Of a stretch of 64,000 nt of DNA, positions 773-54,348 are shown in pieces (within the stretch, counting starts at the first letter, position 1; each line of letters starts with the position of its first letter). This stretch comes from Cliona cf. orientalis (taxonomy: Eukaryota > Porifera > Demospongiae > Clionaida > Clionaidae). The translations under genes were made by a program, and so were the position numbers. Location of the stretch: assembly GCA_963930775.1 (NCBI GenBank), contig OZ005693.1, positions 4,712,001-4,776,000 on the forward strand. The letters run 5' to 3'. The notes under the pieces were generated by a model. That model saw only the letters and a program-made list of their open reading frames with translations. It was not told the origin of the DNA and did no database searches.

Positions 773-775
773 TAT

Positions 776-33327: not shown

Positions 33328-36300
33328 TTATAATATAAAAGAAAATCTGATGTGGTGATCTTTGATGTAACCATACAAGTTTTCAAGCATGCAAAGACGA
33401 CTTTGTTTTTTCCCGGCACTGTACACACGGTAAAGATGAAAATTTCCACCGTGATCTTCAGCGAATTTTAATTGTGTCCATGAGATCGAGACGAGCTCCT
33501 TCTCATCTGCCGCTGTGCTCTTTACTTCGATGTATACGGTTCGGAATTGCTGCAATGAACTATCTGATTCCAATTCAACAACAATGTCATATGGCTTATC
33601 GGTTTCTTCATCTTCATTAAGCCACGAGATGGACTTGATACGACTTCCATCAGGCAAATATCCTTTCTTCTGCAGTATGATGAATACATACTGTTCACCC
33701 CATCGGCCTACCTTAAACCTAGATTCCTCATCATCCGATGAAACAGCCTCCATTAGCTCCATTAAAGGCACAGCATCAGCTCTTTCACTATTTCGGACAA
33801 ATTCCTGAATATCAGTTAATTCAATCTCAGAATCAAGACGTTGCATTGCTCTCCATTTTGAATCTTCAGGATAACTACGGTGAGTTTGAGAATCATTACT
33901 ATGAAATTTCTGTCTAAGTTGATCACGATTTTGCTCAAACTGAATTTCATTTGCTTTCATTTCTGGTACAGTATCTTGTAAAGTGCTTATTAAATACTGT
34001 GATGATTTGGAGGTAGCTCCACTTTGCTTAAGTTCACTACACATTCTTGATTCATCAGGAAATGATTGAGTACCTTGTATCGTGGAACTTGTATGAGGAG
34101 AGCAAACAGTTTCAGAATTCGTAACAGTATCAGATGGAGTGGCAAACTGTTCTATTCTAGGAATTTTCCGAGGCTTCTCCTCTGGATCCACACTTGAATC
34201 AGCATATCCCTGAAGGTGCTTTTTCCTTGCCTCACGCAGTTCTTCTTCACCGATTACACTACTCGACAAGTCTGGACTAACACCAAACTCTCCAGATGGG
34301 GTAGAAATTCGTTTTACATTATGTGGGGCATTATATGAGGGATCAGCAGATGCTTTGGGTGGCCAACTGGTTAGTCTTCTCTCTTCTTCCACAATCTCCA
34401 TGCCTCCAGAATCAGGCTTTGCTTTATCATCCTCTTCTTCTGCTGATATATCGGTTTCATCATCAGTAGTGTTCTCCTCGGTCTCTACACTTTGCTGATG
34501 CTTTGGAAGAGGTATTTCCCATACTGGTTCATCATCTGGCAAACACTCTAAGCTATATTGTTTAGCTACATCCTCCAGTTCATCTTTTGTCGTTGGGCAT
34601 TCAAGCAATAGGTCTTTAAAAAAGCCTTCAATAATGTTGAACTCTTCTCCAGAAGAACTTTGAGCAAAGAGCTTCATCAGCGCTGGAAGCAGACATTTTG
34701 GCTTTTCAATTTTATCTGCCGCAATAAAAATTGTTGATGTACATGCGTTAACATCGTAACTGTATTCACAAGATTTTTTGATAGTATCAGGACCAGGTAT
34801 TTGATAAATGGAATGGTCAATGAAGTATCGACAGCTCAGTGACATGACAGAGAGTACTTGAAGCCTGCATAGCTTATCTTGTATATTACTTTCCTTAAGG
34901 TTGGTATACAGATCTTCACAGTTAGTTGCGATAAACTGTTGGATGATGGATATCCAATTGCTAAGCTGAAGTTTAACATTGTGCACTGGTCTTGCTTCAC
35001 CTCCATAGTCTACTTTAGGTGTGGCTACAGCACTGAGCTTTGGAATCTTGCACATGCTGATGAAACTTTCTCTAGCTTCTTGATTGGCTAGGATTTGTTG
35101 CTTACTAGTATCTCTAGCCTTTCTATTGCTAACAATGTTATCAGGCCAAAGAATAAAGAACACCTTATCCGATTTTTGAAAGCACTTAGCAATATGTTTA
35201 TCATCATTTTCAAGTAGGCATTCTTGGAGAGATACCCACATACGGTTTTCCGTTGGAAAAATTTTGGCATTTCTTAGATTGCTATAAACAAAATCTGGAT
35301 TAACGTTAGAATCTTCCTTGCACAGTCGCACAAGCTCAAAAGCAATACTAGTAAAATCTTTTACATGTTCAGGCTCTGGATGATGAGAGAGTGTACTGAT
35401 AAACTTTAGTAGGGTTAGATACGAAGCTACCCGAGGAGCTTCAGGAACCCCAAAATGAAGGAATGCTTGTTGAACTTGACTGCTCATACTTTGGTCATTC
35501 CTTGTAATGTAATAGAGTGAGAGAACTTTGGGAAGGTGAGCAGAGAGTGGAAGAGAAAATCTCTGTCTGGTATACAGAACACTGGAAGGATCTTTCCAGC
35601 ACACTGTATGAATTGTTTCAAAATGACCTGGTACATCAACATTGACAGAGTTTTCTTCAAATCTCTCAGGAACATAGATGAGTTTCTCCTCACGAAATTT
35701 CTCAATCAGATCTGAATCTCCTTTTTTAAATGCATGCATCGCATCATAACCTTCACTTTCTCGCTTCAAAAATGCATATACATGGGACATATGCTCAATA
35801 CTGGTACAGAAGGGAGTGTTTTTATCGCTAGATTCTTGTGACCACTCTGTGAGATGCTTAATCACATCATTTTTGCTCACATTTCTCTTAATTCCTAGAC
35901 GACTGATAAAATCTTCATTCTTTAAGTCAGCTCCAATGTATGGCACATGTGAGTGAAGCAAAGTTTGAATATGGCGTGCACTATCAAAGAGCTCACAGCC
36001 AGAAAAAAGGGATTTTGAACCACTGATATGGCCTAATTGATCACACGGAAGCCATGCTTGCTGTACAAGAAATTGTTGAAAAGTAGAGGCTGTAGTTGAG
36101 TCAAGATACGTTTCATTCTTTCCATCATATATCTGAGCTTCAAGGTAATGCTTGTACTCAGTTTCCCAGTATTTATCAAGAACCTCAGCTAGTTTCTTCA
36201 TCTGGCTTTGCTGGTAGGAAGGAGGCTTGCCTACAACCGATTTAATGATCTGCTCGAATTCTTCTGATTTCCAGTCCCTCAGTGTAAGATCACCAGGAGG

Positions 36301-36354
36301 GAGTCTGCTCCAGTGTCTCTCGTGATCATGAAGCCGTTTCCATTCAGGTGAATC
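33328..36354 (-). CDS. NO VEIN-like gene, exon 18 (terminal)
   Basis: Opens after acceptor GCATAG with DSPEWKRLHDHERHW and runs 1,008 codons to TAA at 33328. Contains the post-ATPase helical region, an acidic disordered stretch (EENTTDDETDISAEEEDDK) and, in the last ~125 residues, the DUF3883-like domain: KVGRWGEQYVF, a Trp-Leu-Asn turn, DIVVELE, YIEVKST, SWTQLKFAEDHGGNFHLYRVY. The D...ExK spacing resembles PD-(D/E)XK nuclease-like folds. Confidence 0.85.
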   Translation of the reverse strand, partial: DSPEWKRLHDHERHWSRLPPGDLTLRDWKSEEFEQIIKSVVGKPPSYQQSQMKKLAEVLDKYWETEYKHYLEAQIYDGKNETYLDSTTASTFQQFLVQQAWLPCDQLGHISGSKSLFSGCELFDSARHIQTLLHSHVPYIGADLKNEDFISRLGIKRNVSKNDVIKHLTEWSQESSDKNTPFCTSIEHMSHVYAFLKRESEGYDAMHAFKKGDSDLIEKFREEKLIYVPERFEENSVNVDVPGHFETIHTVCWKDPSSVLYTRQRFSLPLSAHLPKVLSLYYITRNDQSMSSQVQQAFLHFGVPEAPRVASYLTLLKFISTLSHHPEPEHVKDFTSIAFELVRLCKEDSNVNPDFVYSNLRNAKIFPTENRMWVSLQECLLENDDKHIAKCFQKSDKVFFILWPDNIVSNRKARDTSKQQILANQEARESFISMCKIPKLSAVATPKVDYGGEARPVHNVKLQLSNWISIIQQFIATNCEDLYTNLKESNIQDKLCRLQVLSVMSLSCRYFIDHSIYQIPGPDTIKKSCEYSYDVNACTSTIFIAADKIEKPKCLLPALMKLFAQSSSGEEFNIIEGFFKDLLLECPTTKDELEDVAKQYSLECLPDDEPVWEIPLPKHQQSVETEENTTDDETDISAEEEDDKAKPDSGGMEIVEEERRLTSWPPKASADPSYNAPHNVKRISTPSGEFGVSPDLSSSVIGEEELREARKKHLQGYADSSVDPEEKPRKIPRIEQFATPSDTVTNSETVCSPHTSSTIQGTQSFPDESRMCSELKQSGATSKSSQYLISTLQDTVPEMKANEIQFEQNRDQLRQKFHSNDSQTHRSYPEDSKWRAMQRLDSEIELTDIQEFVRNSERADAVPLMELMEAVSSDDEESRFKVGRWGEQYVFIILQKKGYLPDGSRIKSISWLNEDEETDKPYDIVVELESDSSLQQFRTVYIEVKSTAADEKELVSISWTQLKFAEDHGGNFHLYRVYSAGKKQSRLCMLENLYGYIKDHHIRFSFIL

Positions 36355-39300
36355 CTATGCATGCACAGCAATTATAAAGCATCCTTTGAAGGGAGTTCAT
36401 CACAATAATAATTTGTGCCCGGCCCTTTTGCATAATATAATAATTATGATATAATAATATACCAGATCATGTATTATCACAAGAAAGTGCATGCTGTAAA
36501 GCTCTAGCTCTATCGTACACGTACATGTTGTGTATACAGAAAATAGCTAGTGTTCACTATATAGTAGCTAATGCCTTGTAGTGTGTCACCTGTGACTTTA
36601 AACGAACTACAATATAATTATTATATATTATTATGTCCTATAATGGACTAAAGTTACCATGCATAGACTCTGAGGTGATATGGTGCCCTTTGAGTCCTGT
36701 GTAATTGCTTCAGTTCCATACTGAGGTGCCTTTGCATGCATATACCAATTAAGACAGCACCTATTTCAATTGGAATGGATATCACCACATGCAACACCGT
36801 CCAATGAGTTAAGCTGTCGAGCTTCAATGATAGAATTCAGATATCAACCTAACCAGTATCTTATATGCATATGTGAGCACTTATCTAGTGAGCAATCACG
36901 GTGAATCTTCCAATGAAAAAACAATCATGAACAGCAAAACTAGTAACATATTATAATTTATTGTTTTTACTGCTAAATTAGGTTGAACTACATGTATATG
37001 TATCACTAGTGAATTATCGGATTGCACTTGTGCTCTGGCAAAAATCCAGAATTATTCTAATTGTAGTTTTCATAGGCACCGCTCTATATATGTTAGGTGC
37101 CTCTAGTAGAGATACAATCCTCCACACACATTGTCACTGATTATTTACCTCTATGGTACATGCATGCATCATAGGATAAGGAAGATTGAATACTTATTTC
37201 TTATTGTATTAAGAAATTTTTTGTCCATTATATATGGATGTGACAAAATATGTTTAACCAGTATATAAAACATTGATGCATATAATATAGGCGTCATAAT
37301 TACTCTGGATGTTGCATGCCAATGAAATTTACCATGCATGCACACTTAAAGATGTACAGCCTTCCGTGATTCATAGAGAATCACCAACTTTTATGATAGT
37401 AAGTAGATGGAGCACCTAGCTGATGCCTTTGGGGTGGGAAACTATAATATTATTACCGTACCCTCGTGAAAGAGGGCCCACTACGGAATGTCGGCCCACC
37501 CCCCCACTTTGCGCTCAATTTCCTGCTAAGGTCTAGTGTTTTCTCGAATATGCGCCCATGTGTGGCTGCCCTTGAAAACATAGCTCAAATGGGTGGTTTA
37601 TGAAGACTGCATGAACTTCGAATAGTCTATGTAAAATCGATAAGTAACGTGTGTAACAGCCGTAAAACTAAGCCTAGCTAGCTTCATGCCACATTTCAGC
37701 AGAAATAAACGATCGTACAAAGCTAGCAATTGTAGCCATGCCCACTTAATAAGGCTGCACTCAATGACACATGGTGAAGTATCGCGGCCGCCCTTGCTCG
37801 GGATTGGTAACCGTGCTCGAATAAGGCTGAAATCAATAGTAGCTGCTGCTACTATTCAAATTATGAAGCTAGCGTGGGTAACTTACCTGGGCGCTCTTTC
37901 GTGTATAAATGCGATACTGATACCTCAAATATCGGCCCATCCCCCAATCTTGGCCCAATGTAAGGTGCACCGCCCATGGGCCCTCTTTCGCGAGGGTACG
38001 TTAATACTAGAGTCAGAAAGTTTGAGAAGGGAAATCTGAGTTAGGGATGGGAACCAGGGCATGCATCGCATGCACCCTCCTGGTCTTTATTCATTTACCT
38101 CTACAACACTGATATTATCTCGCTGAACTGCTATTCCTTGCTTTACTCCAAGTTTTCTTAGAAATCGAACCCAGGATAAGATATTGTCTTTCTTGGTTGA
38201 TCCTTTTAAGTAGTCACGTTTTATAACAGTCCATTTTACATCTATAAAAAATCAATTCTCATCATTATACAATACCAATCATGATCAATGAAAGTTCACG
38301 TTCTGTATTCCTAGTAATGCTAATATTACAGTGTATATACTAAATCTTGTTATGCATGTCATAGGTGTAGGAACCGGGGGGGGAGGGGGACAGAGCTCCC
38401 TTTATTCTCCAGCCCAGTATTGTTCCAACACAGATTTCTAAAGTTTACCAAGCCTGCTTATGAGTAAATGTGCCTCAATAGCTGCCAAATCTATTCCATT
38501 TGACGTACAGTTCATTTTTTCACTGAGAAACTCATGATAGCAACCTCAATCGTACAAAATGAGCATGGTCGTAAAAGTTTCGCACACACTTCGTGCACAA
38601 TTGGATATTCAGCCCCTCCAACCTTCAATATCTTCCTACGCCTGTACATGTATTTCATGCATGAAAACGTATTGTAGTGGTAAGTATATAGTAACAGAGA
38701 TATACTATGATAATCACTATCCTCCCAGTATATATATCGCTACAGCCACCCGCATTACTTGCATATCCCTTTAACTAGTACCTGGAAATAGCTTCTCCAA
38801 ATCTGGATCTGGAATATACGATGAACTGTAGTGCACTACATCTTTGCTGGGCAGTTTTGGACCTTGGTTAGTGACTACCACAACAGAGTCCTTGAGAAGG
38901 TGGACAATCTCAGCCTCTGTTATTCCAGATCGTGGCTGCTCTATACACTCTTTGATGTATACTAGAAAATTACAGATTAGATCCATCTTCTTAGTCTAGA
39001 GAGAAATGATGATTCAGAAGTGATAATTGCATGTATGCATATACTACAGCCTAAGTATCACAATAGCAGGGTGTTTGCTGTATATAGAAGGATTCGAAAT
39101 TTATGGAGATACAATCCGGGTAATATCTGCTATAATATTATTGCAGGTGTCTCCTGTTGAGTGATGCCTGCATTAAGTGGTGTACCACTGTAGTAGCATT
39201 TTTAGGATGTACAAGCATAAATATGGTAAGGGTCATCCCCTAACTTGATAGTACATGTATACACACAATAATTATTAGAACGTGATAACACACTTGATAC

Positions 39301-42300
39301 TTCTACATGTACATGTACATGTAAGTGCGTATCTAATCACATGCTCAATAGAGGGGATATTGGCAGTATATATGTATACATGTACCTTCCAGGTCCCAGT
39401 TGTGAACTGTGGAAGGATATGGTGCTTGATGATATCCATAGGATAGAGATTTCTTACTCCTATGAGTTCGAGAACCTTGCGTACTCTAGACTGGATCAAA
39501 ACTTCGCCTTCCTCAAACAGAGCTGATTCCACTACTCTTATTTCCTTATAAATGGCTTTGAACTCACGAGAACTAGACCTGACTTCTCGTTCACCTACAA
39601 AAGATAATCATCACATACATGTATACAGTGTATGACATTTCCATAAGATACACATGTAGTTCTCAATGACGTTCAAAAGCATGTAGTGTCATAATTACCC
39701 AGCGCGCATGTGCAAGGGGTAAAGTAATCAGTCGTTTCGTCGTTGTTGTAGTTGTAGTTAGCACAAATATCGCCATATCTCGAGGTCTAGGCACCTGAGC
39801 GACTCGTAAGCATAATGATTCAGTCGCATTTGATGAAAAATGGGCTTCGGTGTGCTTCGAATCGAGGGACATGGTCCACGAGCATCACAAATAGTGCCTT
39901 TTTGTTAGCCTTCATAACCACGCCTATCAACAGTGCCCACTCAATGCATTACGCATGTGGCTCTGTGCTTTCTGCTCATGTGCGTAATGAATATTATGAG
40001 TTGGTAAAGGTCGTCAATAATGCTAGTGGCATAATAATGTTTGTCTGCTAGCTATACACAGACTGGAATGTAAAGCCCCATCGAATCAGAATGTAAGATA
40101 CATATATCTACCTAGTCTAGATCTGGTGCAGAGAGAGAGTCAGTGGCTTTTGGCTGCTATCACCAGGGGCCTATAATTATGCAACCAAGGGCTTATGGAG
40201 TCTATGAGCATTTTTTGTTTCCCCATACACGCAGAAGCAGATCTATAGATTGCGCAACGTGCGCGTGGGATATGTGCTCTATAGAGAGATTCACTCTATT
40301 ATCAGTCTAACAATCTACCAAAATGACCACTCAGAGAGGGCCAGTGATAATCAAAGATAGCTACTTCAGGATCGAGCTACTTTGAGCTGGTAAGGGTACA
40401 AACAAGAGCTTAATCTAGGATGTAGGTCATTTCGTGGAGCAAAAGTAACAATTAGTGGGTGTGGTCATCAAAATTAATGTCTTCACTCAAAAAATTTACA
40501 AGCATAGACCTACATGTATCTTAGCAGAATTTGTAATACTGTAGTATCCCAGGCAAGTGCCCACTCTCAGGAAAGCAAGCACTCATGTACCGCATTCCAA
40601 GGGGCCACTGTAGCAGCTTCATACAAACGTATGAGATTTTGATCCTGGACTAGCGACCATGCAGGCCAAATCACGAGTTACGTTTAAGCACCCATGGGTG
40701 CTTACCTGGGACACTATATGGTAAGTGCATACATGTACCCGTGCAATCAACATCTATCTCAATACTATCATTATACAGTAATATTATTACACGTACCTGT
40801 GCTGCTATCAGGAGGAAAGAATAAGCTTGTTTCACTCGTTGTGGCCATGGTACCATCTTCCAAGGGTAAGACAGCAAACTTTTTGAGCTTATCAATTGTC
40901 TCTGTACACATATCATTGCTATCCTCGATTACCATGTGTACACAAGCAAGCCAATTAGCAATCCAACGAACTAAAGCTTTCCTAAAATGCTTGGGCCTTT
41001 TGATGATTTGTGCTAACGTCTCGTCATCAGAACTCCCTTCAGAATCAGAATCACTGTCAGATGAATCATTTTTTCTATTAACAGGCTCTTTATAGAGCTT
41101 GATCACTACTTGAGCTATCTCCACTAGGTGATCAACAGTGATGCTACGCATTCCTAACTGATACTGGAGAGCTGAATTAATAAAAGGCAAAAGTGAAGAG
41201 TTTAGATAAGACAGTTTCAGTGAGACGGTCAGCAAGGCCTGAGGAATATAATCTCTAATAAATCCAAACTTTTCCTTGACAAATAAGAGCTGTGAAGGTT
41301 GCTTCCACATTATCTGATCACTGCTAACACTTTGCTCTGAAGCAGGAGTGACTAGGTCTATGAAAGAGTGCTGTGTAGAGGGAGAGTCCAGTGACAATGG
41401 GTCGGATGGCAGGCAGTTGGTCCCCTTATATCTGGCTAGTCACTGGCTGGAAGAAATCATGAAGCTCTCTTTCAAGGGGAACAAACTGAAGAAATTGTGC
41501 CACAGCTTGCATTAAGGATACACCTGGCAGCTCCTACAGTAATTAAAAATCAATTTCATGTATAATACAAACATTATTACAGTGAATTACCTCTTAAGCA
41601 GGGGAATCCCCCAATATACATGCACATACATGCCAACCGTCCCGAATTAAGCGGGACACGCACAATTTTTGACTGCTGTCCCACTGTTCTGCCTTGCTTT
41701 CAGTGTGTCAGGATTTTTGAAGTGGCTTGAAATATGTATAACTAAATACAGTGGCGTAGGAAACGAGGAGGCTCCAGGGGCTGGCGCCCCCCCCCCCCTT
41801 GTTAGTAGTATCAGTCCATATTCTTAGATTAGCAAAACTTGGGAAGTTCTCTCAGCCCAGTATTGTTATAACACAGATTTCTTACCTGGCCTGATAATGT
41901 GAGTAAAATGTGCCTCAATAGTATTCTACTTGATCTACAGTTCGTCATCATCGAGATAGCAGCCTCGATCGTGCAAAAATGGGCGTGGTTTGACACAAAG
42001 TAGGCGTGGTCGCAAAAATTTGCACGCGCTTCGCGTGCAATTATTTTTGAGCCCCCCCAGCCTTCAGTATCTTCCTACGCCTATGAAATGAGCACCAGCC
42101 ATGGATAAACCAAAGTAGCTAAGCAGTGAACATAGGCAAAGTTCTTTAGGAGCTTAGCATTAGACTATAAGCATCATACTTAACTGAACGTTTCATTTTG
42201 TGGATCTAGCTATTTGCCACGCCCACTCACAATTGCATGATGATCATTACCAAATTCTTGGTACTGCCCCGCTCCGTAGAGGCAAATCACGATTTTTGCC

Positions 42301-45300: not shown

Positions 45301-48300
45301 CTACTAAAGCTCCAGTACAGAATAGGCTTCTTAAATATACGATAAATACCTTATTGCCATAGTAGAACGACGATACCTCGGAAATACCACTTGTTCATTG
45401 CCTTTTGCATTATTACTCGTGCTTCGCACTCGTAACAATACGCAGCAATGAACTCGTGATATTTCCCGGTATTGTCGTTCTACTATGGCAATAAGTATAT
45501 AGTATCATTATGGTACATTGTACCTACATATTATAATATGTGACCTGCTCTGAGAAAAGGGACCTTAGCACATAAAATTAATATTCATTTTCCAATAATG
45601 GCTGAAATGTGAAAAAATATGCTTTTCTTCAATTTTCTACTTTTTAGTGTATCAAAAAATTGAAGGTTCTGGCTTCATTTTGATATATTATGTTCATACA
45701 TTTGTATCAAATAAAATGTAGCTATGGGCGCATTTAATTGCTCCGATATATGCACCTTAATACAGAATTTAATAAAAAAACGCCTATTTTCAGAAAACGA
45801 CTGTGTCTACCCGAGTAAACAAAAATGGTCATAACTCCACATGTGATCAATATTTTTCCTTGCAACTTGCACCATTGTACTAAGCATAGACAGACCTATC
45901 TACCCATGCTAAAATCTCAATGTTCATAAAAATGTCCCTAAGGTCCCTTTTCTCAGAGCAGGTCACATATACTTAATATTCTCATCATTACCTTTATGTT
46001 TGTATTATTATAATGTACACTGTCATAGCATGCATGTGGTAACTTACAAGAGGAGGGAGCACATGTATGTAAAAAGCTATAGTGATAGTATTGTACATCT
46101 GCTAGTGTTTTACAGTAGTGGCTTGAGAGCGGTATACATGTAGTTTACTGTGTACACAAAAATTTTCGCTGAATAAAAAAAATTGGTGGAATTTTTTTGA
46201 GGTAAAGGTCGTCATATCTTCTATGCAATCTTTAACACAGGACAAAAAAATTAGCACGATCGAATATTTCCTGGCAAAAATTTGTAGGTACATGTAACGT
46301 GTATACGGTATTACAATTAAATGTAGACTTAATGTTCTCCTTTGGCTCTCATTTAGCTTTCATGCATGTAACACTCTCCAATGGCTTTGTACTGTGCATG
46401 TATCTACCTGATCCTGGACAGTGATGCTCCTGAGGCGATGAAGAAATAGCAGTAATGATGGCTGAATGTCATTAAACTTCTTGGCCATATTGCTGGTCAG
46501 ATGACTTTCCTTTAAGTTAAGAATAATCTTTGTTTGCCACCTGCACGACAATGTGAGCAGTGAATACCATGTTTATGCTAATAAAACACATGATCTAATT
46601 AGCGAAAGAAAATTTGCGTTCTAGGATTTTTCATAGTGTATCTTAATGGAGCACGTGACGATTTTTACCAGAAAATTGCGCAAAATTTAAAAATCGTAAT
46701 TATTTTTTTAGCTTGCATTCTATTAGCATAAACACGATATACATGTATCATAGATATACGCTTATCATAAGTCTCTTACATTTTGCCCTCCTCCTCTGAC
46801 TGATAGTTCTCTATCCAGTGGGGTAGAATGAAGCCTATGGGGTCAGCACTGGCATCAAAGCCAATGTGAAATCCATTGGAATGAATCTCTGGCTTGTCTG
46901 TTACTCGAAACACTGACTTAAATCCAATCCCTTTCTGTCCAATGTACCCTGAGCGATGGGCTCCCTTTGTGCTCTTACCAACATCACATATCGCTCGGAC
47001 GTTCTTCTCAGAGAATCCAACTTCATTGTTAAGCACCACTATAGTGCCGCTATTAATGACGAACTTTAACGAGGGAACTTCCCCACGAGCATCCCTCCCA
47101 CTGAGAAGGTGCGGGTGGTACTCATTGTCATCTGCATTTTGGATCAACTCCAGCACAAAGTGAGTGTCCTTGCTGTAGAGTTCAAGGGAGAGTCGTTTGA
47201 TGCCACGCCCTTCACGTTCTCGCTGTTTCTCAGCCACAAGCTGCTGCTGAGCATCAAGGTCAATTCCATCTCCAAATTCGTCATGTCTGATGGCTTCTAC
47301 AACCGCTTTACAACTATCCTCTCTCTCCTTTAATTCTTCAGTAGTCTAATAGACAAACAAATAAAAAAATAACTACATTGTATACCTACAAATGTACATG
47401 TACATCTGTACATTGTACGTCATCTAGATAGCCATGCAAGCCCCACTACTAAACAAACTGGCTTCAAGCCTATAACTTGCTTGGCTATATACATGTACAT
47501 ACATGTACATCACTATGACTACTACTACTACTACCATAGAATCTCGTGATTACACCCACACCCCCCCTAAGCCCCCCTGCATTTTTAGCTCAAGTTCCTG
47601 CATACATGTAGGTAGTTTTGTCTCGCGTATAAGCCCCCTCTCTGACTGTAAATACAGACATTACAGACCATAAGCTCAGTAAAAACAGTAGCCACAACTA
47701 CAAACTAGCTATTCGTGTCTTATTATGCCTAACGTTAAGGTTTTTCTTGAGTTTTGCCCACCAAACAGCTGGAGAAAGTACGGAGATCGCGCACCCATGT
47801 GGCATTTGACAGTCGGTAATGGTCGTCACACAGAAATGTTAGGCTCCCACGTATAAGCCCCCTCTCCACTTTTGCCCAATGCTAGCATGCGCACAGGGGG
47901 GCGTGATCGCAGGATTCTACGGTACTACTACTACTACTAAATGCATACATACCTTGGTACTATCTGCCACATATTCCTTCGTTACTAATTCTTCAGCTAT
48001 TTCAGAAATTTCCATTAGCTCTTCATCGTCTGTTGAAAGAGAGTTATCCAGTCCAGGAGTGACTGTAGACTGCACATCACCTGAGGCTCCCTATAGGATA
48101 AATATTTGAGTAAATACATGCATTTAATATTATCATACAGGTGCATACACCTTATGTAATCCAAATGCATTGATAGATGTAGGTGAAGCAATATCAGACG
48201 AAACTTCTCTCTTCTGGTGAGACTCAGTGAGCATTGTTTTGAAGTCGTCTGCCCATGATTTGATTCCAATGGCCATGCCCAGTGACTGGAAGAACCTCCG

Positions 48301-51300
48301 ATGCTCAGAGGTGGTGCAAAGCTTCACTAGTCCATCAACTGTTGCGCTGCTTGTTATCTTTCTCGAAGGATCAATAAAGAGCTATTATATTATAGAAAAA
48401 TAGATTAAAGATACAGAATATACTAATATTATAACATTAATATGAACACTGGGTTGTTCCCTCCCTTCTTGTGCCCTTCAAAATTACATTAGTGCAACAG
48501 TAAAGCCATACATATACATGTACATGTACATTCATGCATTTCATTATCACAGTCCCCTCTGATGAACCCCCTCACTCACCTCACTCGCTAACAGTTGGCA
48601 TATCTTGAAGGGTATTCGAACAAGAACTCGGTATACGAATTGAGCAACTTCATCGCTAGTCTCTTGCTCACCACAGACACCATTAGTTGCCATTTTCTCC
48701 AGGCAGGTGGTCACATGACTGGCTAGAAGCTGAAGAGATATATCCCGAATGCTTCCACGCTTCACTACCAGAGAGACTAGATGGCCAGCTGTGTTGATAG
48801 GATCTGAACTCTGCAAGGAATTGATAAAATCTGAAACAGAAGAGTTAGGGTTAATTCTTATCAGCCGCCCTGGAACCACCTCCAGAGCATGCACAGCACT
48901 GTTTGGCTGACTCTCCAACACTCGCTCTAGAAATGCATCAAGCGGACCATGCTCAGGCTGATAGACAAGTTCCCAATGAGACCACTGCTTCAAATCCTCC
49001 AGTAAGGGTGCTTTCTGTAGACAGCTCAGCGCATCATCACTGCTCTGGTGTCCAAGAACGCCAACTCCTTGCTTTGTGTCTTGAATGTTGGTACCGCCGT
49101 TGAGCAAAAGGGGGCAGAGATAGCTAATGGAAGGCGTCTGTGCTGTTATCTGAGAGTCCTTGCTCTCCAAGATGATCTTGTGGACACTGCCACAGCTGAG
49201 ATCTTCAAACGAGTTAACTCCAAATTGAGAAGTCACACAGGCAGACACAGCATCCTGTGAGGATATAATAAGTAAAGATAGTACTACAGGAAACCAGGAC
49301 TATAATATACATCATTCATGTACATTTATTCCCTTCATCAATAGACTCAATTGTTTAAGAACAATATGTACATGTATAGGATGTATATGCAGGTATACAC
49401 GTGCACAATGTCATAATATACATGTACATACATGTACACACACATGTACACGTGCACTTGTTGGTAGTTGCCTAGCAACCAAAGTCTTTATAGGGAATTT
49501 GCTGGCTATGGAAAGGGGTTGGGTCATCATAAAGTAGGTCAATGATGAATAGAGGTCAACTACCAACAAAATAGTTATCTGCCAGTAATTGGGGTGCATT
49601 CGACCATGCATCTCATGCACCCTAATTACTGGCAGATAACTATTATATACGTACACTCACACACACAGTCATCAATCCATCACAATAAATGCAATTACAT
49701 ACATGTATATGCACCTTACCTGGTCATCTCTTTTCTCTAAGTTGAGCTGTTGAATGATGCTCATCACCTTCTTCTTGACTCCAGCAATGTGTGACGAGCT
49801 GGAGTTGGTTCCAATCAGTCGTCCTCCGAGAGCCTCACACGCCTTATCATGTGACGCCACAAAGCCAAGAAACGAACCATTTCCAAGACTGTCAAAATTA
49901 GGAGCACCGTACTTGTCCACAATCATCGCTTCAACTCGAGCCAGAGATCCAAGGTCAATGGGAAACCGAGTCCTCTTCAAATGGGAGATCACCTCCCGTA
50001 ACACTTCACCTGATAATACAAACAAGAATAACAAAGTACAGTGCAACCTTGATTATCCGGCCCTCGGTTAACCGGCACCTCGATTATCCGGACTCCACTG
50101 ACAATTTCTTGAAAGGTCAAGGGTCGACAATTACAGTAACGCGCATGTGCATACGTAAATTTCACCCCTTTATTTTATCACAGGTATGCATGAGGCGCAT
50201 GCGCGTAATTAGCGCTCAAGCTCACATACACTCGTACTCAGCGGATCGAGATCGCTGCAGCCGAGGAATACTCAAAGTCACGGCTTCATGTCCGAGCACT
50301 GTTCAGTACGTGTCTATGTAATGAATTTGCGTGTGTGTGCATGCGCAAATCACAGTGCCGCGTATGTATGATGTCATATTCAGTTATCCGGACTATTCAC
50401 TTATCCGGCACTATCGCGCTGACCCTTGGGACAAAAGATGTCCGGATAATCGAGGTTGCACTGTACAGTATTTGCACAATAGTACATGTATATCAATTAA
50501 TTTTAAAGAAGTATGCTGGAGTGAGGGTACTGTAGAAATACATGTACATGTATATATAGTTATTGAAGGAGTCAGATACCTGTGTGTGCTCTTGGACGGA
50601 GGGGGGAGCGTCCAAGAGGCTAATGATCAAGCTGATAAAAAAATTAATCACTCCGTGCACTACACATACCTTGTGGTTGAAGGAAAATCTGTACATCTTG
50701 ATGAGGTGCACCAGATGCCTGTGCGGGACAGTGATTCTCCATAAACTTTGGCACTAGTGTGTCAGCCCCGTAGGCCCCCTCATAGATGGCCAGAAGGAAG
50801 AGATGACGCAGAGCTGGCTTCTCCGTGATCATTTGCATGAAGGTGCCCACCTTGGCTTGCTGAGGCCCCATAAAGTGCTTATTGCAAGCATCAAAGATGC
50901 TGAATAGTATCTGAACAGGATCTTTCCCGGCCAGGTCCCTGCGTATGGACAGGGGGTCATCAGCATGTGTTCCAGAGAGCTTCTTTCTCAGCTTCTCCGT
51001 CTCGTGCTGGAGTAGCACTTTCATTTCTTCCTCCAGGGCTACCTCCATCCTCCGCCTAGCCTGGATCTGACTCGAACGAAATCGAAAGTTGGTCTGGATT
51101 ATGTATAGAAAACCAAGAATACATCAGCACTATATCTAATCCTTCAATGTAAGTCCCCAACAGAATGAGCTATTAGACTTCTAGGAAGTGGTACCTTCCC
51201 ATTGCCAGGCTGGGGATTGTTATTGACCATAAACCACAATTACTGTTATTTATATAGTGGGTATGATTATTGGGAAGATAGTGATTCAAGAAGCAAAACC

Positions 51301-54300
51301 AGTATAAGAATTGTTCCCAGTAATATAGTAAAAGGTTCTCACTATGAGTGGGGAAGTTCCCATGCATAGTCTAAAAGTACAATACTAGGAAGACTACAGC
51401 ACACATTCTTGATATTATACACTACTCCATGCATCCACTAATGCCAAATAAGAGTATATTATTTCTTGCTAATGTATGTCCATACCTGAATGGCTAAGGG
51501 GAAGCTGGTTATCCTAATACAGAGATGATAGACACTCTCAGCAAACTCTCTTTCGCGAATATATTCAAGAAAACCTTCCAATGATTGCTTCTCTGATCTT
51601 TTCCTCTTGGATAGAAACTTCATTAGGTAGTTCTGGATCTTGTAGGCAGAAATGTCAGGAACAGTGTCCAGCGAGGCAGCATTTTGAAGCTTAAACAAGT
51701 CCATGACCTTAGGGTGCTTGATTATGGGTCCCAGGTGAAGTGCGTCGTAGTTATCGACCTTCTCAGATTCGATGATAGCTAGCTCCAGCTCATGGAGAGA
51801 GGTGACCGGAGAAAACCAACAGAATACCTTGATCAATTCTTCAATTCGACCATGCACTTTGGAATAATCTGCCATTGCAGTGATGTCCCGATAGACAATT
51901 CGGTCATATCGATCATAATTTTCTTTCCTTATTATTTCCAGAACGAGCCCTCTAACTTTGTCTGGCTGAAGGAACTTTCCTTGAGAAGACAAGTCACTGA
52001 TGAGCTCTTCAACTTTGGCATTGATGTTTTCAACAACTTTCTGCTTACTAATATCACTGGTAACACTTTTTCCTCTTTTCTTTTTGGACGATGACAGTTC
52101 AGTGGCACCTGGAGGTGTCTGGGGAACGGGCAAATCTGGACGAAACGAAGCATGACTTGGTAGGACCGTTTCCTGCCCAAGGGCCAAGTTAGGGTGAGGA
52201 AATTTAGCAACCACTTCATTCATTGGTGGAGGTTGATACGGCGGCAATAGAGACGGATGACCAACAATGGGAAATTGCCTGTGAGGTGTAATGACTTGTG
52301 GTGGGACAACGTGAGGCTGGGGGCCAGGTGACAGCGAGGGAGAGGAACCGGAAGAAACTCGTCTAGGAGTAGACCTCTGATCTGGTGATAAGGGAAGGTA
52401 TTCTGGAAGAGCATTGCCAGAATGTGGACTTGGAGTATGCCTGCCAGGGTCTACTGGGACAATCCCTCCTCCCATTGCTCCGTGGGGTCGTTGGTGACTA
52501 ATTAGGTGTGCTCCTCTCTCATGGTCGTGGTGTGGGGGACCGATTATCTGTTTGTGTGTGTGAGGGGGGTGTGCTATACCCAACTGCTGAGGAGGTGAAA
52601 TAGTACCTAGATTAACTGAAGGGAAAGCTTGTTGCGGAAGAGATTGTGTTGGAAACGGTTGTTGTGCTGGAGGTGGTCTTAGTACTTGTACTGGAGTTGG
52701 ACCACCAATCACCGTCTGAGTATGACTTGGCTGGGGGTTTGGTAGCAGTACTCTACCGGAGGATCTGGAAAGCAAAGGGTACTCGTCAACGTCCATTCTG
52801 GGAGGATCTCTGTGTACCGGACTGGCACTTTCAATGGCCTTGGCTTCCCGACGTCTCTTTCGGGAACTTTGAACCGATGAACCATCTTGTTGTAAAGATT
52901 CATTCTCCACTCTGGATCCCGGATCAGCATCACCATGGAGATGTTCATTTTTCCCCCCAGAGGCAGCGTGCACTTTAAGGTTATCTTGCTTAATAAGTAT
53001 CAAATCTGGAAGCAGTTCCTCTATACCGCTCACCTGCAGAACCGTGTAGATGGAGTCGATCTCGATTCCTGTACATGATTTAAAAGTGTGAGCTATGGCT
53101 CCAGGTGATCTCTATAGACCTGTAGTCTCTCCACATTGCTTCAAAATCGGGGTAAAGAAGAATTGTATAAATTTGGATTGACTGAGAGTTACTCTGCCAC
53201 TATCAATCCGGTGTCCTAACGATAAACGTCCCATCCAAATTACGTCCGGGGGACGTAAACGGGTTAATAAGCTACGTCCGGGGGGACGCATGTCGCCATC
53301 GAATATTGTCCGGTGGGACGCGATTCACCGTTGAACTGCGTCCCACAGCGTAGAGCGTAGAATGTCGTCCCCTTCGCAGACTTCCACTGCTCGCGGCTGC
53401 CGGCCCACTTGTAACAAACAGTAGCAAGAGTATGGTCTTGATCACTGATCAGTAGTAAGATAATGTTGTTGAATACTATCTTAGCATAATAGCTAATTAT
53501 ACTTTATAATGAACAAAAATGACTTATCATGATCTATGAATAATCAAAGATATTATACACATACCGGTATCACCAAGAATGGCAGTGCCATAGTTCTGCT
53601 CGAGGAACAGAGAAGAATCCAACACAGCGTATGATACCAATGCTCACACTTGTCCATTGAATCAAGTCTCCATGCAGTGATTCTGGCATTTGGCTGCATT
53701 TTCTTGCGGTTGGAAACCGCACAAGTCCTTTAAACACTGCAAGAGGTCATTTCTCATCTGAGTGGTACTGTGCATGGAAGTATAAAATATTATACTGACA
53801 TGTACTATTTCATTGTCATAATAATTATTTATTACATACCGTGCTCTTCTCTCCATCATTCTCATCATCTTGCTTCCCATCTAGCCCCTTCACAAGAGGG
53901 AGGAAGGGGCTGGGTATCCTATCAGTGCCTGTCTTCTCTCCACCACCTTTCTTTCCATCAGTGCCTAATTAATTAGCCCTTTGGCGCCTTTTTCACTGGG
54001 GCACTCGCGGCGGCGAGCGGACGTTATCCCGGCACGTATGGCACGCGGGACGGATATCGTTAATTGATGGCGTCCCCCCAGACGTATTCGAGTTTACGTC
54101 CCCCGGACGCGATTCTACGGGGGACGCTATACGGCATGACACCGGCTAAAAATCGGCAGTTCATCAACAAAATAGTCAAGGTTACGAGAGAATCCGAGTT
54201 TGCAGGGAGAAAAGTTCTTCCTGTATTTGGACTGGTAGGCCTGAGTCAGTCCTCGAACAGCAATGGGCTGGAACTGCTGGGACTGAAACACTTCACCAAA

Positions 54301-54348
54301 CTCCTTAGCCAGCAGAAAACGACGAACGTCGGGATCGGAAGATGCCAT
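33328..54348 (-). CDS. NO VEIN-like giant ATPase protein (multi-exon gene)
   Basis: A 21-kb gene. Sixteen exons (3-18) join with consistent phases and GT-AG sites; exons 1-2 are less certain; the product is about 3,000 residues. Order: possible LOTUS-like helical domain (exon 1), Pro/Gln-rich disordered segment then helical region (exon 3), helical middle (4-8), Hsp90/sacsin-type ATPase with ELIQNADDNEY and GYIGQKGIGFKSVF (9), the family line VFAFLPLRSYGFRFILQGDF...SSRE (13), SPEWKRLHDHE and a long variable region, and a DUF3883-like C-terminus with DIVVE...YIEVKS (18). This order matches plant NO VEIN and its animal relatives. Cellular role in animals is largely unknown; the fold suggests ATP-driven clamp/chaperone action. 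One frame break lies in exon 14. Introns are dense with MITEs. Confidence 0.8.
36355..38098. other. Intron 17 of the NO VEIN-like gene
   Basis: 1.7-kb intron, AT-rich, with the MITE at 37454-38003 next to exon 17. No other gene inside. Confidence 0.5.
37454..38003. mobile_element. MITE with CGTACCCTCGYGAAAGAGGG ends
   Basis: TIRs of about 27 bp (37454-37480 and 37977-38003) sharing GTACCCTCG and GAAAGAGGGCCCA with two mismatches. 550 bp, no transposase. Lies in intron 17, 95 bp from exon 17. Confidence 0.85.
38099..38241 (-). CDS. NO VEIN-like gene, exon 17
   Basis: Phase 1 in, phase 0 out. Encodes DVKWTVIKRDYLKGSTKK and SWVRFLRKLGVKQGI, the WxxFLxxLGV line common in NO VEIN-type proteins. 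Donor GAG|GTAAAT. Confidence 0.8.
38360..38646. mobile_element. CATAGGYGTAGGAA MITE, copy 1
   Basis: Ends CATAGGTGTAGGAA and TTCCTACGCCTGTA; CATGT duplicated on both sides (38355-38359, 38647-38651). Internal words (CCCAGTATTGTT, CACAGATTTCT, TGTGCCTCAATAG, TTCGTGCACAATT) match the copy at 41749-42085. Within intron 16. Confidence 0.8.
38782..38995 (-). CDS. NO VEIN-like gene, exon 16
   Basis: Phase 0 in, phase 1 out. Encodes TKKMDLICNFLVYIKECIEQ, EIVHLLKDSVVVVTNQG and YSSSYIPDPDLEKLFPG. Acceptor CTCTAG, donor CAG|GTACTA. Confidence 0.8.
39386..39594 (-). CDS. NO VEIN-like gene, exon 15
   Basis: Phase 1 in, phase 0 out. Encodes EREVRSSSREFKAIYKEIRV, VLIQSRVRKVLELIGVRNLY and IIKHHILPQF, a helical segment. 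Acceptor TTTGTAG, donor AAG|GTACAT. Confidence 0.8.
39595..40796. other. Intron 14 of the NO VEIN-like gene
   Basis: 1.2 kb without a coding signal; contains CpG-bearing stretches near 39700-39960 but no resolved element. Confidence 0.4.
40797..41533 (-). CDS. NO VEIN-like gene, exon 14 (contains a frame break)
   Basis: Opens ELPGVSLMQAVAQFLQFVPL..HDFFQPVTSQI and meets TAA at 41426-41428. The coding sense resumes at once in the neighbouring frame with KGTNCLPSDP, the expected family line, and runs to LPLEDGTMATTSETSLFFPPDSS. Exon length is 737; its phases require 736. One extra base in ATATAAGGGG (about 41422-41431) explains everything. Confidence 0.75.
41749..42085. mobile_element. CAGTGGCGTAGGAA MITE, copy 2
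   Basis: Ends CAGTGGCGTAGGAA and TTCCTACGCCTATG, flanked by AAATA and AAATG (imperfect 5-bp duplication). GC-rich 3' half with CTTCGCGTGCAATT. Sits in intron 13, between exons 13 and 14. Confidence 0.8.
42368..42550 (-). CDS. NO VEIN-like gene, exon 13
   Basis: Phase 0 both ends, 61 codons. Encodes DLQQQQVFAFLPLRSYGFRF, ILQGDFDLPSSREDVNSDSP and WNQWLREEIPPLF. This is the most conserved stretch of NO VEIN/sacsin-like proteins after the ATPase core. Confidence 0.87.
42551..43850. other. Intron 12 of the NO VEIN-like gene
   Basis: 1.3 kb. Contains a TATG microsatellite near 42735-42760 and an inverted pair GGGCCAAGTATAG/CTATACTTGGCCC (43157-43169, 43310-43322), probably another fold-back element. 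ACATGTACATG repeats near 43755. Confidence 0.45.
43851..43931 (-). CDS. NO VEIN-like gene, exon 12
   Basis: 81 bp, phase 0 both ends: FKPDVEATELALAFPITRDL, TNMTLAK. Matches the TELALAFP line that precedes VFAFLPLRSYG in the family. Acceptor TTTACAG, donor AAG|GTATTA. Confidence 0.8.
43932..44818. other. Intron 11 of the NO VEIN-like gene
   Basis: 887 bp with no coding signal; holds the tRNA-like sequence at 44473-44555. Confidence 0.45.
44473..44555 (+). repeat. tRNA-like sequence (pseudo-tRNA or SINE head)
   Basis: GGTGTAGCGGTTAAG resembles an A box and CAGTTCGAATCC a B box. The outer GTCAAGA and TCTGGAC pair 6 of 7, but the T stem pairs poorly and no clean anticodon stem forms. Inside intron 11, opposite to the host gene. 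Confidence 0.5.
44819..44956 (-). CDS. NO VEIN-like gene, exon 11
   Basis: 46 codons, phase 0 both ends: VSGLERCMVRRDKQRGIVDI and TTDRWLVVKKLLDKASE. Acceptor ATGTAG, donor GAG|GTGAGC. Confidence 0.8.
45350..45496. repeat. CpG-bearing fold-back palindrome
   Basis: Arms of ~65 bp meet at ACTCGTGCTTCGCACTCGT. The outer 20 bp (CTTATTGCCATAGTAGAACG) are perfectly inverted. Similar in size and build to 3325-3470. Confidence 0.85.
45537..45969. mobile_element. MITE with perfect 31-bp terminal inverted repeats
   Basis: The first and last 31 bases (start TATGTGACCTGCTCTGAGAA, end GCAGGTCACATA) are exact reverse complements. 433 bp. TA at both borders fits a Tc1/mariner-type target. The perfect ends suggest recent movement or selection for hairpin ends. 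Intron 10. Confidence 0.92.
46408..46540 (-). CDS. NO VEIN-like gene, exon 10
   Basis: Phase 2 in, phase 0 out. Encodes WQTKIILNLKESHL and PSLLLFLHRLRSITVQDQ, the LLFLxxLRxI line after the ATPase. Acceptor GTGCAG, donor CAG|GTAGAT. Confidence 0.8.
46570..46734. mobile_element. Small MITE, TGTTTATGCTAATA family, copy 2
   Basis: Perfect 14-bp inverted ends TGTTTATGCTAATA and TATTAGCATAAACA, 165 bp. It makes up most of the 239-bp intron 9 of the host gene. Homologous to 31537-31684. Confidence 0.88.
46780..47345 (-). CDS. NO VEIN-like gene, exon 9 (Hsp90-like ATPase)
   Basis: Encodes the GHKL ATP-binding core: FVLELIQNADDNEY (N box with the Mg-binding Asn), VVLNNEVGFSEKNVRAICDV (G1-like), STKGAHRSGYIGQKGIGFKS (glycine-rich lid). 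Sacsin and NO VEIN share this order. Phase 0 in, phase 2 out; donor AAAAT|GTAAGA. Confidence 0.9.
47532..47924. mobile_element. MITE in a (CTA)n target, TACCRTAGAATC ends
   Basis: Ends TACCATAGAATCTCGTGATT and ATCGCAGGATTCTACGGTA, 17 of 22 positions inverted-identical, flanked on both sides by CTACTACTACTA. GTATAAGCCCCCTCT occurs twice inside. Intron 8. Confidence 0.75.
47953..48090 (-). CDS. NO VEIN-like gene, exon 8
   Basis: 46 codons, phase 0 both ends, acidic: STDDEELMEISEIAEELVTK. Acceptor CCTATAG, donor AAG|GTATGT. Confidence 0.78.
48151..48381 (-). CDS. NO VEIN-like gene, exon 7
   Basis: 77 codons, phase 0 both ends: LFIDPSRKITSSATVDGLVK then RRFFQSLGMAIGIKSWADDF. Acceptor ATAATAG, donor AAG|GTGTAT. 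Confidence 0.78.
48580..49254 (-). CDS. NO VEIN-like gene, exon 6
   Basis: 225 codons, phase 0 both ends. Opens DAVSACVTSQFGVNSFEDLS and ends PFKICQLLASE. Mostly helical. Acceptor TCACAG, donor GAG|GTGAGT. Confidence 0.8.
49255..49719. other. Intron 5 of the NO VEIN-like gene
   Basis: 465 bp with ACATGTACATG repeats and the hairpin at 49570-49644. Confidence 0.45.
49570..49644. repeat. 29-bp-arm hairpin in intron 5
   Basis: The left arm starts AATAGTTATCTGCCAGTAAT. The arms (49570-49598, 49616-49644) pair 28 of 29 around a 17-base loop. Size and pairing would suit a small-RNA precursor or a minimal fold-back element. Confidence 0.85.
49720..50009 (-). CDS. NO VEIN-like gene, exon 5
   Basis: Phase 1 in, phase 0 out: GEVLREVISHLKRTRFPIDL, then FLGFVASHDKACEALGG and VMSIIQQLNLEKRDDQ. 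Acceptor TATCAG, donor CAG|GTAAGG. The acceptor lies 30 bp from a pogo-like MITE. Confidence 0.8.
50039..50463. mobile_element. pogo/Tigger-like MITE
   Basis: Ends CAGTGCAACCTTGATTATCC and GGATAATCGAGGTTGCACTG (22-bp TIR, one mismatch) with TA on both sides (50037-50038, 50464-50465). CAG...ACCTCGATTATCCGG is the usual end of pogo/Tigger transposons. 425 bp, no transposase. Intron 4, 30 bp from exon 5. Confidence 0.88.
50670..51093 (-). CDS. NO VEIN-like gene, exon 4
   Basis: Phase 0 in, phase 1 out: TNFRFRSSQIQARRRMEVAL, ILFSIFDACNKHFMGPQQ, FLLAIYEGAYGADTLVPKFM. Acceptor AATCCAG, donor AAG|GTATGT. Confidence 0.8.
51486..53068 (-). CDS. NO VEIN-like gene, exon 3 (long, Pro/Gln-rich then helical)
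   Basis: 1,583 bp, phase 1 in and phase 0 out. Opens GIEIDSIYTVLQVSGIEELL. Residues ~60-320 are disordered: Pro, His, Gln and Ser-rich, with a basic KRRREAK cluster that could be a nuclear signal. The last ~190 residues are helical (VEELISDLSSQGKFLQPDKV, ELIKVFCWFSPVTSLHELEL). Acceptor TGTACAG, donor CAG|GTATGG. Confidence 0.8.
53236..53300. repeat. ACGTCCGGGGGACG repeat, left partner
   Basis: TACGTCCGGGGGACGTAAAC and a second copy, TACGTCCGGGGGGACGCATG, 30 bp on. The same two units occur inverted at 54060-54110, making an ~870-bp-wide inverted pair around exon 2. Confidence 0.75.
53565..53964 (-). CDS. NO VEIN-like gene, exon 2 region (uncertain borders)
   Basis: Two candidate exons. 53840-53964 (GTDGKKGGGEKTGTDRIPSP to DGEKST, donor ACG|GTATGT) and 53565-53598 (QNYGTAILGDT, donor CCG|GTATGT). 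The second joins exon 3 in phase to read GDTGIEIDSIYTV. The join from exon 1 is not settled because its best donors do not match these phases. Confidence 0.45.
54060..54110. repeat. ACGTCCGGGGGACG repeat, right partner
   Basis: GGCGTCCCCCCAGACGTA and GTTTACGTCCCCCGGACG are the reverse complements of the units at 53236-53300. Just downstream of exon 1 in the gene's sense. Confidence 0.75.
54143..54348 (-). CDS. NO VEIN-like gene, exon 1 (candidate, LOTUS-like)
   Basis: ATG at 54346-54348: MASSDPDVRRFLLAKEFGEV, then FQPIAVRGLTQAYQSKYRKN and KLGFSRNLDYFVDELPIF. The pattern of helix, Tyr, Gly-Phe and Leu-Pro resembles OST-HTH/LOTUS domains, which bind RNA or Vasa-type helicases; this is family-pattern inference. 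End set at a weak donor (CCG|GTGTCA). Confidence 0.55.

What the first reader, a model, noticed from the sequence alone, without database searches (positions are those of the whole stretch)
33328..54348. Giant sponge NO VEIN-like protein: possible LOTUS, disordered, Hsp90-type ATPase and DUF3883-like parts in one chain
Seen: sixteen phase-consistent exons, a complete GHKL motif set in exon 9, the VFAFLPLRSYG line in exon 13 and a terminal D...EVK domain in exon 18. Known: plant NO VEIN and sacsin share the ATPase fold; DUF3883-type domains also occur in bacterial helicase and restriction-type proteins. Inferred: an ATP-driven clamp with a nuclease-like or nucleic-acid-binding tail, perhaps with RNA recruitment if the LOTUS-like exon is real. 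The function of animal members is largely open.
Basis: partly seen in the sequence, partly recalled or inferred. Interest (0 to 1): 0.75.

Follow-up and report, generated by a model that had tools for sequence, protein, structure and literature searches.

The report
Animal NO VEIN-like protein, defence-gene relative
This is one large eukaryotic gene whose second half matches, from end to end, a bacterial anti-virus protein called TmtA, suggesting that the poorly understood NO VEIN proteins descend from a bacterial defence machine with an ATP-type switch and a DNA- or RNA-cutting tail.

Summary
The gene is real. Sixteen minus-strand exons (53068-33328) are GT-AG and phase-consistent and encode 2,857 aa. 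The GHKL exon matches Pfam SACS and the tail NOV_C, both above cut-off. The surprise: the C-terminal 1,755 aa match PADLOC's TmtA model at 428.8 bits (E. coli HtpG reaches 27.6, or 33.3 with another TmtA model). They span a profile of 14 prokaryotic relatives from 8 to 1514 of 1533 in three stretches (684 bits), which independently supports the ten exons from 47345 down. Relatives are scattered over bacteria and archaea, some near restriction or other defence genes. The tail keeps a D...ExK site and has a confident restriction-type model, so a nuclease is plausible. The N-terminal half has no detected relative. LOTUS is unproven (15.4 bits, cut-off 23.8; poor model; weak exon-1 splice). The GHKL set is not fully canonical: Hsp90's adenine-Asp position is Asn. 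Proposed mechanism, inferred: an ATP-gated, immune-like nuclease with an added targeting half. "Sponge" was not verified.

The parts
54142..54348 (-). Putative exon 1, ATG at 54348; weak LOTUS-like stretch; its 3' splice to exon 2 is unresolved
   Evidence: OST-HTH 15.4 bits, cut-off 23.8; single-sequence AlphaFold2 pLDDT 52; weak donors
51486..53068 (-). Exon 2: start of the supported chain; about 315 aa rich in Pro and Ser (probably disordered), then a helical-looking region
   Evidence: 527 codons open, CAG|GTATGG donor; 17% Pro, 11% Ser in chain residues 31-345
50670..51060 (-). Exon 3
   Evidence: GT-AG, phase
49720..50009 (-). Exon 4
   Evidence: GT-AG, phase; only sub-cut-off Pfam matches
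48580..49254 (-). Exon 5
   Evidence: GT-AG, phase, 225 codons open
48151..48381 (-). Exon 6
   Evidence: GT-AG, phase
47953..48090 (-). Exon 7; last exon of the half without detected prokaryotic counterpart
   Evidence: GT-AG, phase; N-half gives no PADLOC match and no tblastn match in 99 loci
46780..47345 (-). Exon 8: GHKL ATPase. N box ELIQNADDN 47150-47124, G1 NNEVGF 47030-47013, G2 GYIGQKGIGFKSVF 46949-46908
   Evidence: Pfam SACS 57 bits; TmtA 258.3 bits for exons 8-12; motif coordinates
46408..46540 (-). Exon 9
   Evidence: GT-AG, phase; 40 of 44 aa in match columns of the prokaryotic profile
44819..44956 (-). Exon 10
   Evidence: 44 of 46 aa in match columns; weak acceptor score -0.8
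43851..43931 (-). Exon 11
   Evidence: 27 of 27 aa in match columns, 18 at posterior 0.7 or more
42368..42550 (-). Exon 12: VFAFLPLRSYGFRFILQGDFDLPSSRED (post-GHKL middle region; its Arg is conserved in 93 of 93 other rows)
   Evidence: 57 of 61 aa in match columns
40797..41370 (-). Exon 13
   Evidence: 142 of 191 aa in match columns
39386..39594 (-). Exon 14
   Evidence: 59 of 69 aa in match columns
38782..38995 (-). Exon 15
   Evidence: 71 of 71 aa in match columns
38099..38241 (-). Exon 16
   Evidence: 47 of 47 aa in match columns
33328..36354 (-). Exon 17, terminal, with stop codon; contains the NOV_C domain
   Evidence: 1,008 codons open; NOV_C 52.3 bits, cut-off 22.1; 730 of 1,009 codons in match columns
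33331..33723 (-). NOV_C (DUF3883) nuclease-like domain: E 33696-33694 (GRWGE), E 33606-33604 (WLNEDEE), D 33588-33586 (YDI), E 33528-33526 and K 33522-33520 (IEVK)
   Evidence: coordinates; conservation in 23 other rows: GRWGE E 19, WLNEDEE E only 10, D 23, E 21 (Asp 2), K 23; AlphaFold2 pLDDT 86.1, pTM 0.81; Foldseek

Best explanation
It is a eukaryotic NO VEIN-like protein built as a TmtA-type prokaryotic defence protein (GHKL/sacsin-type ATPase, conserved middle region, C-terminal PD-(D/E)XK-type NOV_C nuclease) with a long N-terminal half added. Shown: one chain from 47345 down, full-length homology to TmtA, intact GHKL N and G2 boxes, intact D...ExK site. Inferred: nucleotide binding closes the GHKL-middle part as a clamp or switch, which licenses the tail to cut or grip foreign or aberrant nucleic acid, while the Pro/Ser-rich and helical N-terminal half supplies recognition, localisation or restraint in the eukaryotic cell. 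The most likely role is immune-like or surveillance nuclease activity kept from the prokaryotic ancestor; a developmental role as in plant NO VEIN could be secondary. My odds: homology and architecture of the C-half about 0.95; catalytically able nuclease about 0.65; defence-like biological role about 0.4.
For: PADLOC TmtA PDLC03972 428.8 bits, eight TmtA models in all for the C-half, none for the N-half; control E. coli HtpG 27.6 bits with that model and 33.3 with its best TmtA model. Profile of 14 prokaryotic relatives: 684 bits in three stretches spanning profile 8-1514 of 1533 and protein 10-1751 of 1755; HtpG 14.3, best of 20 shuffles 0.9. Relatives: 447 of 518 candidate stretches, best 80 kept; top hit 44% identical over about 320 aa. 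Tree places the protein inside a 19-row clade at 99/95. At the nuclease site Asp 23 of 23, Lys 23 of 23, Glu 21 of 23 with Asp in 2. AlphaFold2; Foldseek to SPARDA-complex chains, HinP1I and a Holliday-junction resolvase. Defence-type neighbours in 5 of 8 loci looked at and annotated qatABCD beside L002. DUF3883 is called a novel REase domain in PMC3710099 (passages).
Against: No activity of any kind is shown. Tiamat's mechanism is listed as unknown (PMC12926258 and PMC10482375, passages). The Hsp90 adenine-Asp position is Asn, so ATP use is not certain. No Foldseek match reached E 0.001, query TM-scores of the nuclease matches named are about 0.5 or less, and the top four matches by E-value are Rep15, not nucleases. 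The second acidic residue (WLNEDEE) is Glu in only 10 of 23 rows. Neighbour genes were picked by size without a background control; 3 of 8 loci showed no PADLOC match among those scanned, and UvrD-type matches are generic. Plant NO VEIN is known for a developmental phenotype (recalled; passage in PMC12289216).
Confidence: 0.6

Rival explanations
1. It is a sacsin-like chaperone: the Hsp90-like ATPase remodels client proteins and the NOV_C tail is a dead, protein-binding leftover.
For: Pfam SACS above cut-off; NCBIfam sacsin N-terminal ATP-binding-like domain 74.6 bits; PDB sequence matches to mitochondrial Hsp75/TRAP1 (best E 0.00015) and sacsin (best E 0.0013).
Against: Only one SACS stretch and no Ubl, DnaJ or HEPN match in the two halves scanned; TmtA scores 428.8 bits over the C-half against 55.9 for SACS, though the TmtA model is longer; the nuclease D, E and K are kept.
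Confidence: 0.2
2. It is a developmental or RNA-regulating factor: an N-terminal LOTUS domain recruits an RNA helicase or RNA, the ATPase clamps, the tail binds nucleic acid without cutting.
For: OST-HTH is the only Pfam match of exon 1 at E up to 5 (15.4 bits, E 0.017); plant NO VEIN is described as a nuclear factor needed for cell-fate decisions (PMC12289216, passage).
Against: Below the cut-off of 23.8 and partial (profile 20-47 of 71); an implausible family (EutA, also below its cut-off) scored better elsewhere in the same chain (E 0.0002); no LOTUS structure found by sequence; poor single-sequence model; exon 1 may not be joined.
Confidence: 0.15
3. Two adjacent genes: a separate N-terminal gene (exons 1-7) and a TmtA-like gene from exon 8 on.
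For: No homology bridges exons 7 and 8; the N-half has no prokaryotic counterpart among what was searched.
Against: Exons 7 and 8 are in phase with usable sites (AAG|GTATGT; TCTATTAG), and exon 8 has no Met before the ATP motifs, so it needs an upstream exon. A long N-terminal half in plant NO VEIN is recalled, not tested.
Confidence: 0.1

Closest known systems
TmtA (PADLOC PDLC03972), the protein of the Tiamat anti-phage system (the link of the name TmtA to Tiamat is recalled)
   Same: Full-length, in-order homology over the C-terminal 1,755 aa; GHKL plus middle region plus NOV_C tail
   Different: In 92 of 98 prokaryotic or viral-contig frames at most 80 aa precede the GHKL match; here about 1,100 aa do, and the gene has introns
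Plant NO VEIN (source of the Pfam NOV_C name)
   Same: NOV_C tail and Hsp90/sacsin-type ATPase in one long chain (the plant layout is recalled)
   Different: Plant sequence could not be fetched; identity of the N-terminal half not tested
Sacsin (SRR supradomain)
   Same: SACS/HATPase domain
   Different: No repeated SRR, Ubl, DnaJ or HEPN match
DUF3883 restriction-type nucleases
   Same: Conserved D, E, K and helix-three strands-helix-strand order
   Different: Here behind a GHKL ATPase; in PMC3710099 (passage) DUF3883 is fused to a SNF2 helicase

Membership tests
NO VEIN-like | NOV_C (PF13020) above gathering score | tested here: met
   52.3 bits, cut-off 22.1; 51.4 in the 1,755-aa half
NO VEIN-like | Hsp90/sacsin-type ATPase upstream in the same chain | tested here: met
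   SACS 55.9 bits, cut-off 32.8
NO VEIN-like | N-terminal half homologous to plant NO VEIN | not testable with these tools
   No eukaryote collection searchable
TmtA (Tiamat) | Match to TmtA model over its length, in order | tested here: met
   428.8 bits in 3 stretches; pieces at model 19-347 and 1086-1293 of 1302; separate prokaryotic profile 8-1514 of 1533
TmtA (Tiamat) | Chain starts near the ATPase | tested here: not met
   About 1,100 aa precede it, with no TmtA match; 92 of 98 prokaryotic or viral-contig frames have at most 80
TmtA (Tiamat) | Anti-virus activity | not testable with these tools
   Needs experiment
GHKL ATPase | N box E and N; G2 glycines | tested here: met
   E, N and three G are the same in 93 of 93 other rows and here
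GHKL ATPase | G1 Asp that reads adenine | tested here: not met
   Asn here; Asp in 0 of 93 other rows; a one-column alignment shift is not excluded
PD-(D/E)XK nuclease | D and E-x-K on a beta sheet with flanking helices | tested here: met
PD-(D/E)XK nuclease | Significant match to a solved nuclease structure | tested here: inconclusive
   SPARDA-complex chain at probability 1.00 but E 0.005, query TM 0.47; none at E 0.001
Sacsin | Several SRR copies, Ubl, DnaJ, HEPN | tested here: not met
   One SACS stretch and none of the others in a Pfam scan of both halves
LOTUS (OST-HTH) protein | OST-HTH above gathering score or winged-helix model | tested here: inconclusive
   15.4 bits, cut-off 23.8; single-sequence model pLDDT 52, pTM 0.21

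The most novel reading that the evidence does not exclude
The NO VEIN proteins of eukaryotes are Tiamat: a prokaryotic anti-phage ATPase-nuclease acquired whole, given a eukaryotic targeting half, and still working as a cell-autonomous immune nuclease in early animals. Plant NO VEIN would then be the same machine put to developmental use, or an immune protein whose loss mis-fires development.
Probability: 0.3. Interest if true: 0.85.

Novelty: new member of a known kind. Interest (0 to 1): 0.6.

Why it matters
NO VEIN is best known from a plant phenotype (recalled), and Tiamat is listed as of unknown mechanism in the passages seen; this gene ties the two together over 1,755 residues. That turns an open question (what do NO VEIN proteins do?) into direct tests: nucleotide binding, nuclease activity, response to viruses. 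It also offers an explanation for a report that 100% of Tiamat calls in plant-associated metagenomes lay on plant genome sequences (PMC12409356, passages): they may be NO VEIN.

Tried and rejected
De novo exon chaining with a hexamer model skipped short exons or invented weak ones; the model was partly trained on this gene's own long exons, so its coding scores are not independent evidence. The final chain was set by eye from splice sites and phase and only later checked against prokaryotic relatives. A stretch at 38635 (KILKVGGAEYPIVHE) was rejected: it fits no phase between its neighbours. LOTUS: three ways of ending exon 1 were scored, none reached the cut-off; PDB sequence searches of exon 1 and of a stretch around exon 4 gave nothing convincing at E up to 10. 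EutA and other sub-cut-off Pfam matches were judged chance. The N-terminal half: no tblastn match in the 99 loci held; a 377-aa part of it gave no confirmed relative in viral contigs. PDB sequence search with the last exon: none at E up to 1. No paralogue of the gene elsewhere in the window at E 0.001. A BLAST of intron 1 against the window did not run (its query file was never written), so nothing is claimed about copies of it. No eukaryote collection was available. Literature: no paper in the library holds both 'NO VEIN' and 'Tiamat' (0 papers) or the phrase 'protein NO VEIN-like' (0 papers); the lists (Tiamat with other terms) were seen as listings and only five Tiamat papers were opened for passages; subscription papers are mostly missing, so the link may be in print elsewhere.

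Full report
THE GENE. On the minus strand, sixteen exons from 53068 to 33328 form one open chain. All introns are GT-AG and every junction is in phase; the product is 2,857 aa. The open frames alone are unlikely by chance only for the long exons (for example 1.3e-15 for 53068-51486 and 3.1e-29 for the last, assuming independent bases at 40% GC). The short exons need other support. That support exists for the ten exons from 47345 down: a profile built from 14 prokaryotic proteins aligns to them in order, in three stretches spanning profile positions 8-1514 of 1533 and protein 10-1751 of 1755, 684 bits in all (the middle stretch scores only 2.8 bits). Exons 11, 15 and 16 have 27 of 27, 71 of 71 and 47 of 47 residues in match columns, with 18, 70 and 37 at posterior 0.7 or more. 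In the same kind of search E. coli HtpG scores 14.3 bits and the best of 20 shuffles 0.9. The six upstream exons rest on splice sites, phase and open frame. They are probably the same gene because the GHKL exon has no Met before its motifs and a stop just upstream.

Pfam SACS (57 bits for exon 8, 55.9 in the 1,755-aa half) and NOV_C (52.3 and 51.4 bits) exceed their cut-offs. The VFAFLPLRSYG exon is a conserved part of the post-GHKL region; its Arg in SSRED is present in 93 of 93 other aligned rows. The NOV_C tail keeps the nuclease residues: among 23 other rows Asp 23, Lys 23, Glu 21 with Asp in the other two, the GRWGE Glu 19; the Glu of WLNEDEE is Glu in only 10. AlphaFold2 with 24 aligned rows gives pLDDT 86.1, pTM 0.81 and the order helix, three strands, helix, two strands, helix. 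Foldseek against the PDB returns chains of a SPARDA complex (probability 1.00, E 0.005; that these are its nuclease subunit is recalled), HinP1I (E 0.014), a Holliday-junction resolvase (E 0.035) and MspJI (E 0.13); Rep15 takes the first four ranks (best E 0.0017) and nothing reaches E 0.001.

The GHKL set is not wholly canonical: in G1 the position that is Asp in Hsp90 (recalled) is Asn, and it is Asp in 0 of 93 other rows (68 Asn, 20 His, 4 Tyr, 1 Phe). The N box and G2 are intact. LOTUS is unproven: 15.4 bits with cut-off 23.8, while an implausible family (EutA) reached E 0.0002 in another stretch of the same chain; a single-sequence model has pLDDT 52; no sequence match to a solved LOTUS. 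Exon 1 itself lacks a good in-phase donor: 54296 (0.0), 54185 (-1.9) and 54140 (-4.6) are the best three. That the window is from a sponge was not tested.

THE MAIN RESULT. PADLOC scores the 1,755-aa half at 428.8 bits against TmtA model PDLC03972, with seven further TmtA models matching, and the N-terminal 1,102 aa at nothing up to E 0.1. HtpG gets 27.6 bits with that model and 33.3 with its best TmtA model, so the model does feel general Hsp90 kinship, but far more weakly. tblastn in plasmids found 26 records for the ATPase region, all under 60% identity, 8 of the 20 listed annotated as DUF3883 proteins. A scan of contigs of 84,980 prokaryote species gave 447 relatives among 518 candidate stretches; the best 80 were kept. 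The top hit is 44% identical over about 320 aa (Leptospiraceae L005), followed by cyanobacteria L006-L008; two short fragments show higher identity, 47 and 51%. BLASTP with L005 runs over 1,460 alignment columns at 26% (E 2e-112), plus a separate NOV_C piece at 34%. In a tree of 94 rows (the spliced protein plus 93 of 98 prokaryotic or viral-contig proteins; three short cut-off frames and two rows with under 60% of columns were dropped; a few rows are duplicates) the protein sits inside a clade of 19 rows at 99/95, next to five Pseudomonadota/Acidobacteriota rows at 96/87. This is an ATPase-domain tree with long branches and no other eukaryote, so the donor is not identified. Against a simple story, four of those five sister rows carry a more divergent tail than L005 or L006, whose NOV_C is closer to this one; the fifth, L010, is cut by its contig end.

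CONTEXT OF THE PROKARYOTIC RELATIVES. Ten neighbour genes in eight loci, picked by size, were scanned with PADLOC: six matched at E up to 1e-5, in five of the eight loci. These were a NERD-UvrD helicase directly behind TmtA in L012, a UvrD helicase in L016, a type I restriction subunit in L006 (about 5 kb away), a type III methyltransferase and JetC3 in L013, and LmuB in L017 (that JetC belongs to Wadjet and LmuB to Lamassu is recalled). The genes scanned in L005, L009 and L039 gave none; by Pfam, L005 has RmuC and a weak N6-methylase behind TmtA. The NERD-UvrD partner lies behind TmtA in L012, L016, L017 and L018 (57-67% identical pairwise), and relatives of it at about 39% are in three viral contigs. 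A plasmid relative, L002, lies between a NERD gene and qatABCD. There was no background control for neighbour content.

LITERATURE. PMC3710099 (passages) calls DUF3883 a novel REase domain. Tiamat's mechanism is listed as unknown in PMC12926258 and PMC10482375 (passages). PMC12409356 (passages) reports that 100% of Tiamat calls in plant-associated metagenomes lie on plant genome sequences, calls their high frequency surprising and asks for further work; plant NO VEIN is the obvious candidate given the present result, though I could not test a plant sequence. PMC12289216 (passages) calls NO VEIN a plant-specific nuclear factor while finding a NO VEIN-annotated gene in a coral symbiont, C. goreaui; the present gene also speaks against 'plant-specific' if the window is animal. 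No library paper holds both 'NO VEIN' and 'Tiamat'.

HOW IT MOST LIKELY WORKS. Shown: architecture, homology, nuclease signature. Inferred from the families: GHKL plus middle region acts as a nucleotide-driven clamp or switch; the NOV_C tail cuts or holds nucleic acid when the clamp closes; the added N-terminal half targets or restrains it. The immune-like role is inferred from TmtA and its neighbourhood, not shown.

Noticed in passing
2-780, 20948-22556, 24399-25998: Three copies of a segment at 81-84% identity (the first is cut by the window edge); two of them hold minus-strand frames that begin alike (MVD[RH]ETQPLLSKLCKSDTNSK). Looks like a tandem family of one protein; no Pfam match for the frames scanned.
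   Followed up: partly
6563-10066 (+): Two long frames (815 and 352 codons) in the same reading frame, parted by a single TAG at 9008-9010; no Pfam match. May be a gene end plus a second frame, a stop-carrying allele or an assembly error.
   Followed up: partly
762-1901 (-): Reverse transcriptase fragment (RVT_1, 92.1 bits), a retroelement remnant.
   Followed up: no
11319-12263: Tandem array of a 65-base unit, about 15 copies, 91% matches.
   Followed up: no
53200-54140: Intron 1 holds several short GC-rich palindrome-like motifs of the kind CGTCCCCCGGACG starting right behind exon 1 (seen by eye); perhaps a small mobile element that disturbs the exon-1 splice.
   Followed up: no
L012, L016, L017, L018: TmtA is followed, overlapping or within a few bases, by a conserved NERD-UvrD helicase gene (57-67% identical pairwise), suggesting a two-gene version of the system; relatives also in viral contigs L089, L091, L092.
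   Followed up: partly
L024, L025, L027, L030, L033, L036, L037, L040, L048: Poribacteria carry a diverse clade of TmtA-like proteins; their frames are short (about 1,070-1,260 aa, one cut by the contig end) and gave no NOV_C match by tblastn.
   Followed up: no
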